Of a stretch of 64,000 nucleotides of DNA, positions 36,310-43,312 are shown in pieces. How positions within the stretch are numbered: position 1 is the first letter of the stretch; each line of letters opens with the position of its first letter. The notes under the pieces were generated by a model. The model saw only the letters and a program-made list of their open reading frames with translations. It made no database searches and was not told where the DNA came from. The position numbers and the translations under genes are program-made. The stretch covers positions 62,001 to 126,000 of the forward strand of contig CANJIV010000002.1 of the NCBI GenBank assembly GCA_947474595.1. Direction: 5' to 3'. Origin of the DNA: Solirubrobacterales bacterium. GTDB lineage: Bacteria; Actinomycetota; Thermoleophilia; Solirubrobacterales; Solirubrobacteraceae.

Positions 36310-37676
36310 TTCGCCGACAGCCGGGTGGTTGCCGTGGTGGAGGTAGTCACCACGAAGGGTTCCGCGACAGCGACACCTGCGATCCAGACGATCTCATCGC
36401 CAGCGACCACTACGGGGACGCTACCCCGGCGAGCCCGCGGCACCCGCCGATCAGTGAAAAGGTCTTGCAAGGAGCGTGTTCCGCCGACTCCTACGGGGCG
36501 CATGCGATCACCGTGGCGCCATGGGCGCACAAGGAGATCCGTTCCAAGTGCGCTTGCGTCAAGAGTCACTGACCACGGGCCGTCCTCATCCTCGCGAGCT
36601 TGGCCTCCACTCGGGAGTTGACCGCTCACGCTTCCAACCGAACTCATCACCTCATAGCCACCCAACCTCACCGACCCGGGCACCGCGAGGAGCACCTGCT
36701 CTAACGGTGCCTGGGCGCTATCTAACGGGGTGGTGGCGAACCGCAGGACGCCGTACTCGATATGAGCTCGCAGACCAGCACCAACATCAAGGGCAGCGCT
36801 CCCAGGGCGTCCCGACAAGGCGATCAGGTCATCGAGCCGACGGGCGACGCCAGCTGCAGGATGGCCGGCGGCCTGCTCGGCTAGGCGCCGGACAACCAGA
36901 CGCGCCAGTGCTGGCTCGAGCCCTGCCAATCGAGCAAGTTCAATCGAACTTGCACCTTCGAGCACCTGATTTACCGCGGAGTCTAGGACGACACTCTCGT
37001 CGCGCAGTAAGCGTGCAGTTTCGACCACATTGGCCTCGGCCGCTGGGTGGATCGCTCGCAGTGCTGGCAGCAGGCCAGTGCGCAGCCGCCCGCGCGCAAA
37101 TCGATCGCTTTCATTGCTGGGGTCATCGCGCCAGCTAAGGCCGCGCGCCGCGCAGTAGTCGCCAGTCTGTTCACGGGTTAGTTCTAGGAGCGGTCGGATT
37201 AGGAGGCCGTCGCGCGGACTCATCCCTAGCAACGCCCGACGCCCGGGCGAGGCCGCTAGGCGGTAGAGAACCGTCTCAGCCTGATCGCTAGCGGTGTGTC
37301 CGGTCGCGATCGTGGCACCGGAGCCTAGTGCGAGGACCGCCGCGCGGGCATAACGCAGATCCCGAGCCCAGGCCTGAAGATTGCCCTTGATCGGCGCCTG
37401 GACGTGCTCGACTGCGAGATCAACCCCGAGCCGCGAGCACAGCTCGATGCAGTGTCGTTCGTCGTCGTCGGCACCGTCGCGCAAGCCGTAGTTGACGTGT
37501 AGCGCCGTGACATCGGGACAGCCGACAAGGCGGACCGCTAAATCAAGCAAACAGACCGAGTCGCGACCGCCCGAGAGCAGCACGAGTACCCCAGCGCCGG
37601 GTGAGAGTAGGCCTCCCTGCTTGACCGTTGCCAGAGTACAAGCCTGAACCCCATCGGCCCCGTCGTCACGATTCAC
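36291..37676 (-). CDS. tilS: tRNA(Ile)-lysidine synthase
   Basis: Modifies C34 of the CAU-anticodon tRNA-Ile to lysidine so it reads AUA. The 461-aa protein has the N-type ATP pyrophosphatase PP-loop LLSGGRDSVCLLDL near residue 34, HTASDQAETVLYRL, and C-terminal TilS-specific domains with WRHGDRMRPVG. GTG 37676 overlaps the upstream cyclase stop by 4 nt (GTGA). Confidence 0.95.
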   Translation of the reverse strand: MNRDDGADGVQACTLATVKQGGLLSPGAGVLVLLSGGRDSVCLLDLAVRLVGCPDVTALHVNYGLRDGADDDERHCIELCSRLGVDLAVEHVQAPIKGNLQAWARDLRYARAAVLALGSGATIATGHTASDQAETVLYRLAASPGRRALLGMSPRDGLLIRPLLELTREQTGDYCAARGLSWRDDPSNESDRFARGRLRTGLLPALRAIHPAAEANVVETARLLRDESVVLDSAVNQVLEGASSIELARLAGLEPALARLVVRRLAEQAAGHPAAGVARRLDDLIALSGRPGSAALDVGAGLRAHIEYGVLRFATTPLDSAQAPLEQVLLAVPGSVRLGGYEVMSSVGSVSGQLPSGGQAREDEDGPWSVTLDASALGTDLLVRPWRHGDRMRPVGVGGTRSLQDLFTDRRVPRARRGSVPVVVAGDEIVWIAGVAVAEPFVVTTSTTATTRLSAKCLASD

Positions 37677-38875
37677 AGCCTCTCCTCCTCGGCCAAGTGA
37701 GCCAGAAATAGCTCGGTTGGATCCTTAAAGCCCTTGAGACGAACCTTGCCAATCATCTCGAACTCAAGGTTAGCTCCGGCCGCCTCGACGACCGTTCGCG
37801 TCACTAGCACCTCACCTCCGGCAGCACGCGTGGCAACCCGCGCTGCGCGATTTACCTCGCTCCCAAAGTAATCACCATCCCTGTAGAGCGTCGCACCGTA
37901 GTGCATCCCGATCCGTGGCTGAGGTCGATCCGGCATAAGCACCTGAAAGCCGATCGCCCAGTCAGTTAGAGCTGCGCAGTCAGAGCCAACAACCATTACG
38001 CCGTCGCCGATCGTCTTAATCACACGGGCATCCTCCGGTAGCGTGACTTGGACCGCGGAGACAAAACGTTCGACCACATCAACAGCAGCCTCGTCGCCTA
38101 GCTCATCGGTCAGCCGGGTGTATCCGGCTAGATCTACGAATGCAATCGCAACTCGTAAGCTGCCAAGTTCCAACGGCACCTGCTCCAGATCTGCCTCCAT
38201 GTGGCCGATCACATCCTGCTCAACGAACTGACGCAAATGGCGCCGGTGGAGTTCGTTCATCACCGGAGCGGCAAGCGGCAGTAGCTCGCTGGCGAGGCCC
38301 TCCATCTGCTCGGCAATCTCGATCCCTGAGATGCCATCTCGCATCAACGGCTCGTGTACATAGAGGTGAAAGAGTCGGACCTCAGCGTCGGCTATTTGCG
38401 CAAGCGCCTGGCTGTAAACCCGGACTAATTGCAGAAATGCCACGAGCGGGAAGCCAGCATCCAAGACTGCTGCGCTATAGCGCAGCAGATCTAGGTCATC
38501 TTGAGTCAAAGCCTCTTGAGCGGCGCCAAGGCCCAAAGCCTGGATCATCCGCTCGATTAGGGCTGGCTCTAGCCCTGTCTGCTTTGCTCCATCAGCAAGT
38601 GTCAGCGGTTCCCTCGTGACGGCAAAGAGATCTTCGATGTAGCCGAAGGCCAGCTGTCCGCTCTGCCCAGCTAGCTTGATATCGGCTAGAGCGTGTCCTT
38701 TGGAACGCAGTCGCGCAACCATACGAGCGTAGGTAGCGACGATTGGAGTCCACGTCCCGTCGTAGTGAGGGATGACTCCACCCTTTGCCCAGCGCTGGAG
38801 CGTGGCTGGCGATACGCCAGCTCGGCGAGCCGCCTCCTTAAGCGACAGCTCAGACGTCGGGCCAGCGGTCGCCAT
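37673..38875 (-). CDS. Class III adenylate cyclase with MerR-type HTH and Rv1264-like pH-sensing domain
   Basis: A 400-aa three-part protein. Residues about 10-60 form a MerR-like helix-turn-helix (SLKEAARRAGVSPATLQRWA). Residues about 90-225 resemble the pH-sensing regulatory domain of M. tuberculosis Rv1264, running into the transducing helix ELHRRHLRQFVEQDV. Residues about 240-395 are a class III cyclase domain with every catalytic residue: metal ligands D248 and D291, adenine-specifying K287 and D335, and transition-state N342 and R346. An active ATP cyclase is therefore likely. It is coupled to tilS by a GTGA overlap. HTH, sensor and cyclase in one chain is unusual; the HTH may bind DNA or proteins. 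Confidence 0.9.
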   Translation of the reverse strand: MATAGPTSELSLKEAARRAGVSPATLQRWAKGGVIPHYDGTWTPIVATYARMVARLRSKGHALADIKLAGQSGQLAFGYIEDLFAVTREPLTLADGAKQTGLEPALIERMIQALGLGAAQEALTQDDLDLLRYSAAVLDAGFPLVAFLQLVRVYSQALAQIADAEVRLFHLYVHEPLMRDGISGIEIAEQMEGLASELLPLAAPVMNELHRRHLRQFVEQDVIGHMEADLEQVPLELGSLRVAIAFVDLAGYTRLTDELGDEAAVDVVERFVSAVQVTLPEDARVIKTIGDGVMVVGSDCAALTDWAIGFQVLMPDRPQPRIGMHYGATLYRDGDYFGSEVNRAARVATRAAGGEVLVTRTVVEAAGANLEFEMIGKVRLKGFKDPTELFLAHLAEEERL

Positions 38876-39849: not shown

Positions 39850-42405
39850 ATGAACTACCGGAAGTTATCCATAGGCCTGCTAGTCGCACTCGCGCTGTCA
39901 TTTGGTGCGGGCGCTTCGGTCCTGCCCTCCTCGGCCAACAACATCCTTCTCTCGTCCATCAACGGAGTAGTACTGACGCCGCCGATACCTCAGAACGGCC
40001 TCATTACCCTGACCTTTGCCTCGCTGGAAACGGTCACGATCCCCTCCCTTGTCCCGTGCTCGGCGACACCGATCCCGCCGCAGCGTGAAGAGATCCTCCT
40101 GATCACTTGTCCGCTAGACCAACCTGGCGCAGAGCCACCGGCACTCCCCGAGCTTAACCCTGACCCAGCCCTAGTTGGAACCCCCATCACCCCTCCTACT
40201 CCAGAGCCGACCCCCACCACTCCTAATCCAGATCCCAAGCCGACCCCAAAGCCGACCCCAAAGCCGACCCCAAAGCCGACCCCAAAGCCTAAACCCAAGC
40301 CTGAGGGTAGCAACGGGCTCGCGATCGGCGGTAAAGAGGTCGAGAGCGCCCAGCCTGTCCTCCAGCGTCCAGTCCTCCAGCGTCCAAGCAAGACTCCGAA
40401 GGTCAAGCCTGCCAAGCCACTGCTCCCAGCGGTAGGTAGTGCCGCAAACGAGATCTTCGGATCGGCGCCGCTCGGAGTCCCGAACTTCTTCATTGAAAAG
40501 TTTCGCATCCCCCCGTTTCTGCTCGGCATCTACCAAGCAGCGGGAATCGAGTACGCAGTGCCGTGGCAGGTACTCGCGGCGATCAACGAAATCGAGACCG
40601 ACTACGGGCGTAATCTGAATATCTCCTCGGCAGGCGCTCTGGGGTGGATGCAGTTCATGCCCGCTAGCTGGGCCGCTTACGGAGTTGACGCCAACAGCGA
40701 CGGGCGCAAAGACCCATTCAACCCAGTCGATGCCATCTTCGCTGCTGGGCGCTACCTCAAGGCAGCAGGTGCAGCCACAGATCTTCGCGGCGCAATCTTC
40801 GCCTACAACCATGCCGATTGGTACGTAGACAGCGTGCTCTTGAGGGCTCGCCTAATTGGCGGCCTTCCCGCCGATCTAGTGGGTGCCTTGACTGGGTTGA
40901 CCTCTGGTCGCTTTCCAATCGGAGCCGCCGCCCGCTACGCCGACAATCTGACTGCATCTGAAACACGCAAACGGGTCAAGCAGGGCAACGTAGCCCAGCC
41001 GATCGAGTCCAACGCCAATCGCGATGCGATCAACATCTACGCCAAGCCAGGCTCTCCAATTATCGCTGTTCAGGACGGGGTGGTTCGTGAGATTGGAGAG
41101 TCAAAGAAACTTGGCGCCTACGTCGTGCTCGAAGACGTCTACGGAAACCACTACACCTACTCCCACATCGGCAAGCTTGCCCAGAGTTACCCATCGCCAA
41201 AGGTTAAGTCCGTTAGCAGTGCCCAGATCAAATCCGAGCTGGCTCGACCACGAACCGATCCCAAGCCGCGTAGCGCTGCCTCAGCAGGCAGCCAAACCAT
41301 CGCAAAAACTGACCGTCTAACTAAATCTAGCACTGCGTCAGCAAAGCTTTCCGGGGCGAAGGGCGCGACCCCATCTGCTGCTGCCATAACCAAAGAACGC
41401 CTCTTCGCTCACCCCGATCGCGCCCACAAAGCAACCAGCGATGATGGCGCTCAACTGGTTGCAATTGGCAGGCCGGTGGCAGGGTATGAGTCCTATGACG
41501 CCTACTTCAAGCAAGTGCTCGGGCTCAAGCGTTCGGAGGTAGAGCTTAAGCCGCTAGTGGCAGGAGCACGAGTGATCGGCGGGACCGTCCTAGGCCGCGT
41601 TGACAAGGTCTCGCCAACCGAGAAGCGTACCCACCTGACCTTCAGGATCCGTCCGGTTGGCGATGGTTCACCACTGATCGATCCCAAACCGATCCTTGAT
41701 GGATGGCGCCTACTGGCATCGACTGCGATCTACCGCTCTCAAGGCGACAATCAGTACTTCGGGCCCGGCGCTAAGAATCCAACAATCGGCCAGATTCTTC
41801 TGATGAGTAAGGAGTCCCTAGAGCGTCGCGTGCTCGCCGACCCCGACATTCAGATCTACGAATGCGGCCGACGCGATATCCGCTCAGGCCAGATCAACCG
41901 CCGCGTGCTAGCGACGCTTGCCTACCTAAGTTCGGCTGGCTTGAAGGTGGCCGTGAGCGCACTTAAATGTGGTCATACCTACTACTCAACTGCGGGCACA
42001 GTCTCTGAGCACAGCTCAGGTAACGGCGTTGACATCGCGGCGATAAACGGAGTTGCGATCTACGGTCACCAAGGCGCTGGCTCAGTAACTGACGTAACAA
42101 TCCGGCGCCTGCTGAATCTACAAGGCACGATGAAGCCACACCAGATCATCTCCCTGATGAAATACCAGAACACCGACAACACTTTGGTTCTCTCCGATCA
42201 CGCCGACCACATCCACGTCGGCTTCTACCCCGGGTTCTCCGACCTGACCAAGCTTGACATCCAGGCCAACTCAGTACTTAAGCCCGAGCAGTGGACCAAG
42301 CTAATTGCCCGCATCGGAGAGATCGAAAACCCCAAGGTGTCCGCTAAGCCATCGAAGTACAGCATCAAGACCAGCACCGGCGCCAAATCCGGCGCTGGCA
42401 AGTAA
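39850..42405 (+). CDS. Secreted multi-domain murein hydrolase: lytic transglycosylase, degenerate M23, LAS peptidase
   Basis: An 851-aa exported protein. A signal sequence (about 1-30) is followed by a Pro/Lys linker with PTPK repeats (about 118-150). A MltB-like SLT domain (about 220-340) contains NEIETDYGRN with catalytic E249, and GALGWMQFMPASW. An M23/LytM-like fold lies at about 388-620 but is split by a low-complexity insert of about 130 aa (Lys/Ser/Ala-rich) and lacks metal ligands (NRDAIN, YTYSH, THLTF instead of HxxxD, HxH, HLH). A C-terminal LAS/M15-like peptidase carries HX6D (H721, D728) and HXH (H787, H789). It should cleave glycan strands and peptides during wall remodelling. 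Confidence 0.88.
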   Translation: MNYRKLSIGLLVALALSFGAGASVLPSSANNILLSSINGVVLTPPIPQNGLITLTFASLETVTIPSLVPCSATPIPPQREEILLITCPLDQPGAEPPALPELNPDPALVGTPITPPTPEPTPTTPNPDPKPTPKPTPKPTPKPTPKPKPKPEGSNGLAIGGKEVESAQPVLQRPVLQRPSKTPKVKPAKPLLPAVGSAANEIFGSAPLGVPNFFIEKFRIPPFLLGIYQAAGIEYAVPWQVLAAINEIETDYGRNLNISSAGALGWMQFMPASWAAYGVDANSDGRKDPFNPVDAIFAAGRYLKAAGAATDLRGAIFAYNHADWYVDSVLLRARLIGGLPADLVGALTGLTSGRFPIGAAARYADNLTASETRKRVKQGNVAQPIESNANRDAINIYAKPGSPIIAVQDGVVREIGESKKLGAYVVLEDVYGNHYTYSHIGKLAQSYPSPKVKSVSSAQIKSELARPRTDPKPRSAASAGSQTIAKTDRLTKSSTASAKLSGAKGATPSAAAITKERLFAHPDRAHKATSDDGAQLVAIGRPVAGYESYDAYFKQVLGLKRSEVELKPLVAGARVIGGTVLGRVDKVSPTEKRTHLTFRIRPVGDGSPLIDPKPILDGWRLLASTAIYRSQGDNQYFGPGAKNPTIGQILLMSKESLERRVLADPDIQIYECGRRDIRSGQINRRVLATLAYLSSAGLKVAVSALKCGHTYYSTAGTVSEHSSGNGVDIAAINGVAIYGHQGAGSVTDVTIRRLLNLQGTMKPHQIISLMKYQNTDNTLVLSDHADHIHVGFYPGFSDLTKLDIQANSVLKPEQWTKLIARIGEIENPKVSAKPSKYSIKTSTGAKSGAGK
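40237..40284 (+). repeat. Four perfect 12-bp tandem repeats in the linker
   Basis: The unit AAGCCGACCCCA is repeated four times without mismatch, coding for KPTP repeats. Exact DNA identity implies recent expansion or slippage; the number of copies may vary between strains without frameshift. Confidence 0.9.
40357..40386 (+). repeat. Two perfect 15-bp tandem repeats in the linker
   Basis: GTCCTCCAGCGTCCA occurs twice in tandem, coding VLQRP twice. In-frame coding duplication in the linker ahead of the transglycosylase domain. Confidence 0.85.
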
Positions 42406-42433: not shown

Positions 42434-43312
42434 GTGAGTGGCTCCGCGCAGATCTTCGGCTTCGTGCAGTTCGAGTTTCCGTGGGTCCTAGGACCTGAGC
42501 CCGGCCGCTACGTGCTGCGCGACTCCAGCACGACCGACCCAACCCAAGTCCTCGTGATCGCCACGCTCGGCGCTGCTCCACGCCGTCGAATTGGCGCCAA
42601 GCGGACCCGCCGTTCCGAGCCCGAACCTGCGCCAGTGGCGGTCACAACGACGAGAGCTACGGCAATTCCAGCCACGCCGCTGGACGGAGCGACGGCCGCA
42701 ATCGCCTGGATGGCCGCCACGCGGCGTGATCCCGGGCCAGCGATCGCCGTTGCCGTTAGCGCCGTAAACCGGGCCATCCATGCCCACAGAATCGCTATCG
42801 CCGACAGCGCCCTGCGCGAGGTCTCGCGAGAGCGGGCGATCGTGGTGCGCATCGGGTATGGCCGCGGCGAGGAAGTAGCCGACGGCCTCTGGAGCGAAGC
42901 CGTAGATATCCCGAGCGTCCATCCATCGCGCAGGCGCCGTAGTGCAGCGCTTCGTCCACAAGAGAGAGTCGCCGCGATGCTTGGTGGCCGCGATCATCCA
43001 CTCGTATGCGAAGAACTCACGCTACGTGCGCGCGCTGACGTCGACAACGGCCGCCTGCGCGAAGGCGCTATCCAGTTGCGAGCCGCGCTGCTGACCGCTA
43101 TTGGCGAGCTAGCTGCCACGCCTGGAGCGGCGCCGGACATGGCCCAGCGCGTTGCTGAGCTAGGCGAATTGATGGGGTCTATCGATGCCGTCGCCGACGA
43201 TGCGATCGGTGGGGTATTTAGCGAGGCGTCAGCGCAGAGTGTGGTCGCCGCACTCCAACGCCTAGAGGCAGCCCTGCGTGCTCGCTCGGCCGCTGGATTA
43301 GCCTCGCCTTAA
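42434..43312 (+). CDS. Uncharacterised protein, polar and Ala/Arg-rich
   Basis: I do not recognise the family. The 292-aa frame begins near GTG 42434 (VSGSAQIFGFVQFEFPWVLG), only 28 bp after the murein hydrolase, and shows a short conserved-looking N-terminus (GRYVLRDSSTTDPTQVLVIATL). A variable Pro/Arg segment follows, then an alpha-helical Ala-rich C-terminal half. No signal peptide, membrane helix or catalytic motif is evident. Codon use looks like its neighbours and the frame is long, so it is probably a real gene. Its stop overlaps the convergent sirtuin stop by 4 bp. The start is uncertain; no SD was found. Confidence 0.7.
   Translation: MSGSAQIFGFVQFEFPWVLGPEPGRYVLRDSSTTDPTQVLVIATLGAAPRRRIGAKRTRRSEPEPAPVAVTTTRATAIPATPLDGATAAIAWMAATRRDPGPAIAVAVSAVNRAIHAHRIAIADSALREVSRERAIVVRIGYGRGEEVADGLWSEAVDIPSVHPSRRRRSAALRPQERVAAMLGGRDHPLVCEELTLRARADVDNGRLREGAIQLRAALLTAIGELAATPGAAPDMAQRVAELGELMGSIDAVADDAIGGVFSEASAQSVVAALQRLEAALRARSAAGLASP

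What the first reader, a model, noticed from the sequence alone, without database searches (positions are those of the whole stretch)
39850..42405. Three wall-cleaving folds in one secreted protein, with a split, apparently dead M23 domain
A MltB-like transglycosylase (E249) and a LAS peptidase (H721, D728, H787/H789) flank an M23 fold that has lost its metal ligands and is split by a low-complexity insert of about 130 residues. Dead M23/LytM domains often activate other hydrolases (EnvC, NlpD), so the middle domain may be regulatory rather than enzymatic.
Basis: partly seen in the sequence, partly recalled or inferred. Interest (0 to 1): 0.6.

Follow-up and report, generated by a model that had tools for sequence, protein, structure and literature searches.

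The report
Two-enzyme wall cutter with dead domain
This secreted protein carries two apparently working cell-wall-cutting enzymes on either side of a third one that lost its metal site long ago, and almost every member of one bacterial order keeps this layout, which suggests that the dead domain has been kept as a control or positioning part.

Summary
Window 39850-42405 (+) encodes an 851-aa secreted protein: signal peptide, Pro/Lys-rich linker, MltB-type lytic transglycosylase (LT), a split M23 (LytM) domain, and a LAS peptidase domain. Across 111 distinct relatives the LT Glu249 is present in every sequence that covers it (109/109). The LAS ligands are intact in 105/108. The M23 zinc triad is intact in 0/107: the first ligand (His) is never His and is Arg in 95/107. 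AlphaFold and Foldseek give an M23 core on both sides of a disordered insert, and a LAS fold (Hedgehog, MepA, VldE nearest).

The insert (~118 aa) is not simply low complexity. It contains two conserved motifs, DPxPxxxASAG and KERLFAxPxR, flanking a variable linker.

The split dead M23 is found in 137/151 Solirubrobacterales genomes (46/48 genera). In an Actinomycetota-wide sample of 296 genomes only members of this order matched. Some paralogues keep LT and LAS without M23.

The EnvC/NlpD analogy fits less well: their target family Amidase_3 is absent here and from 51/61 of the order. The closest characterised precedent is PrgK of pCF10. Most likely this is a bifunctional autolysin whose pseudo-M23 acts on its own chain. 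It is a new variant of a known kind; the mechanism is inferred.

The parts
39850..42405 (+). Whole ORF, 851 aa, secreted LT - dead M23 - LAS protein
   Evidence: full-length relatives
39850..39939 (+). Signal peptide, residues ~1-30 (MNYRKLSIGLLVALALSFGAGASVLPSSA), no lipobox
   Evidence: read from sequence; similar N-termini in relatives
40180..40329 (+). Pro/Lys-rich linker (PTPKPTPKP...), residues 111-160
   Evidence: sequence; low conservation, 0.26 mean identity for 111-203
40480..40899 (+). MltB-type lytic transglycosylase domain, residues 211-350; catalytic Glu249 at 40594-40596
   Evidence: SLT_2 7.7e-16; Slt35/SltB matches; E in 109/109 relatives
40999..41190 (+). M23 first half, residues 384-447; R391 replaces the first zinc His, N395 the zinc Asp
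   Evidence: Peptidase_M23 6.5e-9
41191..41544 (+). Insert that splits the M23 fold, residues 448-565, mostly disordered in the model
   Evidence: pLDDT below 50 around residues 480-518 and 526-551; present in all relatives aligned, 77-170 aa
41257..41289 (+). Insert motif 1, residues 470-480 (consensus DPxPxxxASAG)
   Evidence: column conservation
41392..41454 (+). Insert motif 2, residues 515-535 (consensus KERLFA[NH]PxRPxAxxAGGxxQ)
   Evidence: 0.51 mean identity against 0.14 and 0.25 on either side; P522 98%, A520 95%, R517 93%
41545..41727 (+). M23 second half and C-terminal extension, residues 566-626; T597 replaces the third zinc ligand; R601 is equivalent to EnvC R405 and DipM R589
   Evidence: 0.65 mean identity
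41782..42234 (+). LAS (clan MD type) peptidase domain, residues 645-795; H721 42010-42012, D728 42031-42033, H784 42199-42201, H787 42208-42210, H789 42214-42216
   Evidence: AlphaFold pLDDT 83.7; Foldseek to Dhh, MepA, VldE; HDHHH in 105/108

Best explanation
A secreted, wall-resident autolysin with two working activities: an MltB-type LT that cuts the glycan strand and a LAS metallopeptidase that cuts stem peptides or cross-links. Between them sits an M23 pseudoenzyme. Its zinc site was lost in the ancestor of the family and its first ligand became fixed as Arg. It is kept as a non-catalytic module in the same chain, most likely binding peptidoglycan peptide and/or the neighbouring LT/LAS domains, so that cutting is restrained or positioned until the right substrate geometry is met. 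The conserved motif in the disordered insert is a candidate tether or switch. Shown: architecture, conservation of LT and LAS active residues, universal loss of the M23 metal triad, conservation of the M23 core, order-wide distribution, paralogues without M23. Inferred: both catalytic activities, regulation in cis, the role of Arg391 and of the insert motif.
For: LT Glu 109/109; LAS ligands 105/108; M23 triad 0/107 and Arg391 in 95/107. M23 core still conserved (0.51 and 0.65 mean identity) against 0.14 in the linker. M23 fold across the insert (EnvC 4bh5 TMt 0.70). LAS fold. Present in 137/151 genomes and 46/48 genera of the order; in a phylum sample of 296 only order members matched. Paralogues L107 and L108 join LT directly to LAS with no M23, so LT+LAS can exist without it. 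The genome keeps at least three other M23 proteins with zinc motifs, so M23 catalysis is not lost from the cell. Amidase_3 absent here and in 51/61, which removes the usual partner in trans. This is the only SLT_2 protein in the genome. Precedent: in PrgK a degenerate LytM and a CHAP domain down-regulate the muramidase in the same chain (PMC11323569); DipM's dead LytM stimulates an LT (PMC10336132).
Against: No activity or binding data. The AlphaFold output gave no inter-domain error map, so docking of M23 on LT or LAS is untested. A pure peptidoglycan-binding role would leave the same sequence signature. R601 is conserved in active M23 enzymes too and does not single out regulators.
Confidence: 0.55

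Rival explanations
1. The dead M23 is purely a peptidoglycan-binding (targeting) module, with no effect on the LT or LAS beyond holding them at the wall.
For: PrgK's LytM is reported to bind peptidoglycan in vitro (PMC11323569); no other known wall-binding domain was found in the protein; Arg at the metal position could hold a peptide carboxylate (inference).
Against: Does not explain the nearly invariant extension after the M23 core or the conserved motifs in the insert, though both could have other reasons.
Confidence: 0.25
2. EnvC/NlpD/DipM-type activator in trans: the groove of the dead M23 docks another autolysin or a divisome protein.
For: Fold matches include EnvC and DipM; basic residues at 392 (R or K in 89/107, equivalent to EnvC K321) and R601 (equivalent to EnvC R405 and DipM R589) keep a basic groove; an FtsX ectodomain protein exists.
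Against: Amidase_3 is absent from this genome and 51/61 of the order; this is the only SLT_2 protein here; the window protein itself has Asp at 392.
Confidence: 0.15
3. The M23 is a decaying relic kept only as a structural spacer between LT and LAS.
For: Some paralogues lack it; former ligand and active-site positions 395, 439 and 597 vary freely.
Against: Core conserved across the order, Arg391 in 95/107, 137/151 genomes retain it, including genomes of 1.7 Mb (G023, G431).
Confidence: 0.05

Closest known systems
PrgK of Enterococcus plasmid pCF10 (PMC11323569)
   Same: Three wall-hydrolase folds in one chain, one of them a LytM that lacks HxxxD and HxH; the dead LytM and a neighbour domain down-regulate the glycan-cutting domain in cis
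   Different: Membrane-anchored, part of a type IV secretion system; order LytM-SLT-CHAP; phage-type muramidase, CHAP in place of LAS; no split LytM reported
DipM of Caulobacter (PMC10336132)
   Same: Dead LytM that acts on a lytic transglycosylase and binds a putative carboxypeptidase; profile match 4e-5
   Different: Separate regulator acting in trans, with LysM domains and no enzyme domain of its own
EnvC (and NlpD) of E. coli
   Same: Metal-less LytM fold; R405 aligns with R601; Foldseek TMt 0.70
   Different: Activates Amidase_3 enzymes in trans; that family is absent here; no insert, no fused enzyme
MltB / Slt35 lytic transglycosylases
   Same: SLT_2 domain, catalytic Glu, best PDB sequence match 2.4e-8
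   Different: Far below the MltB equivalog cut-off (45 against 281 bits); different domain context
MepA and VldE LAS peptidases
   Same: H-x6-D and H-x-H ligands, H784/H787/H789 spaced as MepA H206/H209/H211; top structural matches
   Different: No detectable profile match by sequence; bond specificity unknown

Membership tests
MltB-type lytic transglycosylase (SLT_2) | SLT_2 domain over curated cut-off | tested here: met
   58.6 bits against 24.3
MltB-type lytic transglycosylase (SLT_2) | Catalytic Glu conserved | tested here: met
   109/109
MltB-type lytic transglycosylase (SLT_2) | MltB equivalog cut-off (true MltB) | tested here: not met
   45 bits against 281.4
MltB-type lytic transglycosylase (SLT_2) | 1,6-anhydro-MurNAc products | not testable with these tools
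   needs muropeptide assay
Active M23 peptidase | M23 fold | tested here: met
   both halves; Foldseek
Active M23 peptidase | Zinc triad HxxxD and second His of HxH | tested here: not met
   R391/N395/T597; triad in 0/107 relatives
Degenerate LytM regulators (EnvC/NlpD/DipM) | LytM fold without the metal ligands | tested here: met
Degenerate LytM regulators (EnvC/NlpD/DipM) | Basic groove residues needed for activation (EnvC K321, R405) | tested here: inconclusive
   R601 and basic 392 conserved in the family, but R601 also occurs in active M23, and the window protein has D392
Degenerate LytM regulators (EnvC/NlpD/DipM) | Target autolysin (Amidase_3) present in the genome (EnvC/NlpD) | tested here: not met
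   absent here and in 51/61 of the order
Degenerate LytM regulators (EnvC/NlpD/DipM) | Stimulates another hydrolase | not testable with these tools
   biochemistry needed
LAS metallopeptidases (clan MD) | H-x6-D plus H-x-H ligands | tested here: met
   H721/D728/H787/H789; 105/108 intact
LAS metallopeptidases (clan MD) | LAS fold | tested here: met
   Foldseek top six all LAS proteins, modest E 0.03-1.6; model pLDDT 83.7
LAS metallopeptidases (clan MD) | Zinc binding and peptidase activity | not testable with these tools
   needs protein
PrgK-type (DELTA) T4SS wall enzymes | Dead LytM fused to a glycan-cutting domain and a third hydrolase fold | tested here: met
PrgK-type (DELTA) T4SS wall enzymes | Encoded within a type IV secretion locus | tested here: not met
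   flanked by tilS, hpt, sirtuin and fatty-acid genes, conserved across relatives

The most novel reading that the evidence does not exclude
The insert that splits the dead M23 is a built-in switch. Its conserved motif (KERLFAxPxRP) docks into the Arg391-filled former zinc groove, and its displacement by peptidoglycan peptide gates both flanking enzymes, so one pseudoenzyme couples glycan and peptide cutting in a single chain.
Probability: 0.15. Interest if true: 0.65.

Novelty: new variant of a known kind. Interest (0 to 1): 0.42.

Why it matters
Dead LytM domains are known mainly as separate regulators in trans. Here one is fused between two intact, differently acting wall enzymes, is ancestral to a whole bacterial order, and is kept even in very small genomes that lack the amidases such domains usually control. 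That makes it a clean system for asking how one chain coordinates glycan and peptide cleavage, with natural M23-less paralogues as controls. It also adds a second, unrelated case to the self-regulating architecture described for PrgK.

Tried and rejected
Two genome searches failed on the server and were replaced. The LAS domain has no sequence match in PDB by profile and hhalign against single-sequence MepA is not significant; structure was needed. Viral collection: only weak LT-domain matches, no three-domain relatives, so a phage origin is not supported. Considered and rejected: an intact M23 site hidden by misalignment (0/107 triads); decay in this lineage only (the whole family lacks it); a chance LAS motif (105/108 conserved and LAS fold); a type IV secretion locus. 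No paper on this protein in Solirubrobacter was found. The tree of LT+LAS has many weak branches; it suggests that M23-less paralogues arose more than once but does not prove it. The opposite-strand ORFs over the proline-rich linker are products of the repeat and are not genes.

Full report
What is there. The ORF at 39850-42405 (+) encodes 851 residues. It starts with a Sec-type signal peptide without a lipobox, then a poorly conserved N-terminal stretch and a Pro/Lys repeat linker typical of wall-spanning proteins. Then come an LT domain (211-350), an M23 domain in two halves (384-447 and 566-626) and a C-terminal domain (645-795). Pfam gives SLT_2 7.7e-16, SLT 1.9e-9 and Peptidase_M23 6.5e-9, the last for the first half only; nothing passes the cut-off in the C-terminal domain. 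The protein is the only SLT_2 protein and the only full-length member of its family in a 2.12-Mb genome.

The split M23. A profile from 56 relatives matches the solved M23 peptidase StM23 with both halves, the first at columns 17-68 and the second at 193-239, with the insert between (E 2.4e-10). It also matches the dead LytM of DipM (4e-5). The AlphaFold model of residues 205-851 (mean pLDDT 77.5, pTM 0.79) gives both halves high confidence and leaves much of the insert below 50. Foldseek aligns about 220-280 columns of the model to 130-residue LytM domains, that is, across the insert: lysostaphin, S. aureus LytM, EnvC (TMt 0.70) and DipM.

The dead site. In active M23 the zinc ligands are H and D of HxxxD and the last H of HxH. 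Here they read R391, N395 and T597. In 111 distinct sequences position 391 is Arg in 95 of 107 and never His. Position 395 is D in 26, and 597 is H in 17. No sequence has all three. The loss is therefore ancestral and complete, while the core is still conserved: mean pairwise identity is 0.51 and 0.65 in the two halves against 0.14 in the linker inside the insert. The other M23 proteins of this genome that could be read (L102, L103, L105) keep their motifs.

The insert. Only residues 481-514 fit that. On either side lie conserved motifs: D470-P-x-P473-xxx-A477-S-A-G480, and K515-E-R517-L-F-A520-x-P522-x-R524 with GG and Q further on (P522 98%, A520 95%, R517 93%). Motif 2 is as conserved as the first M23 half, although AlphaFold leaves it unstructured. 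That pattern is usual for a linear motif that binds something. What it binds is unknown.

The flanking enzymes. The LT Glu249 is present in 109 of 109. The LAS ligands H721, D728, H787 and H789, with H784, are intact in 105 of 108; L035, L036 and L115 have lost them. The model of the LAS domain alone (pLDDT 83.7) finds Desert hedgehog, MepA and VldE as its six best PDB matches. E-values are modest (0.03 to 1.6), but only LAS proteins come before noise. Ligand spacing equals that of MepA H113/D120/H206/H209/H211 (residues checked; their roles from my own knowledge of MepA) and of VldE H301/D308/H373/H375 (PMC11667670).

Distribution. The M23-plus-insert region is found in 137 of 151 genomes and 46 of 48 genera of the order. 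In 296 genomes drawn across the phylum only eight match, all of this order. Viral contigs hold only weak LT matches. Named relatives are Solirubrobacterales: Solirubrobacter, Conexibacter, Patulibacter, Thermoleophilaceae. Flanking genes (an SCP2-like protein, a conserved protein downstream on the same strand, sirtuin, enoyl-CoA hydratase, hydroxyacyl-CoA dehydrogenase, tilS, hpt) recur around the gene in 17 to 50 of the loci.

Natural deletions. L107 and L108 join LT and LAS within a few residues and have no M23; L110 has an unrelated stretch between them; L117 has two LT copies and a LAS. On a tree of LT plus LAS these are long branches at separate places, compatible with repeated loss. LT plus LAS can therefore exist without M23, which fits an accessory role.

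How it probably works. The LT opens glycan strands and the LAS domain cuts peptides, most likely on the same patch of wall. The dead M23 between them could bind stem peptides in its former active groove, with Arg391 offering a positive charge where zinc used to be (inference), and thereby position or restrain the two enzymes. PrgK is the direct precedent: its LytM lacks the metal motifs and, with CHAP, lowers the activity of the muramidase in the same chain (PMC11323569). DipM shows that a dead LytM can also stimulate an LT through its groove (PMC10336132). The sign of the effect, restraint or stimulation, cannot be decided from sequence.

Why not EnvC/NlpD. Their partners are Amidase_3 enzymes. 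This genome has none and 51 of 61 genomes of the order have none, with the search ringing in E. coli and other controls. The window genome is about 95% complete, so its own absence alone is not proof. An FtsX ectodomain protein exists, so a divisome link through another partner is not excluded. The groove keeps a basic residue at 392 in 89 of 107 relatives (EnvC K321) but Asp in the window protein, as in DipM. R601 matches EnvC R405 and DipM R589, but active M23 enzymes have Arg there too, so it does not discriminate.

Verdict. The thing is a new variant of a known kind: a self-contained LT plus LAS autolysin with an embedded, split M23 pseudoenzyme, ancestral to one order. Function is inferred throughout; no activity was tested.

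Noticed in passing
window 42434-43312 (+): Conserved protein of about 292 aa directly downstream on the same strand, no Pfam match, found near the gene in 44 of the relative loci; possible operon partner.
   Followed up: partly
L035, L036, L115: Paralogues in which the LAS zinc ligands are lost together while the LT Glu remains where covered; a second pseudoenzyme event in the same family.
   Followed up: partly
L107, L108, L110, L117: Paralogues with LT and LAS but no M23; L117 has two LT copies.
   Followed up: yes
L109 360-620 of its ORF: Paralogue whose M23 second half is recognisable but the first half is strongly diverged and the usual insert is missing.
   Followed up: no
L016, L080: Public records titled Bifidobacterium breve that carry clear Solirubrobacterales proteins; probably mislabelled metagenome bins.
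   Followed up: no
window 37673-38875 (-): MerR-type HTH fused to an adenylate cyclase regulatory domain and a cyclase catalytic domain, conserved near the gene in 17 loci.
   Followed up: no
genome of the window: No Amidase_3 in this genome and in 51/61 of the order although FtsX is present here; which enzymes split the septum in these bacteria is open.
   Followed up: partly
G000:C6:134110-134391 (L102): A protein with a long N-terminal stretch that looks coiled-coil plus an M23 domain with an intact zinc motif, EnvC-like in layout, a candidate FtsX partner.
   Followed up: no
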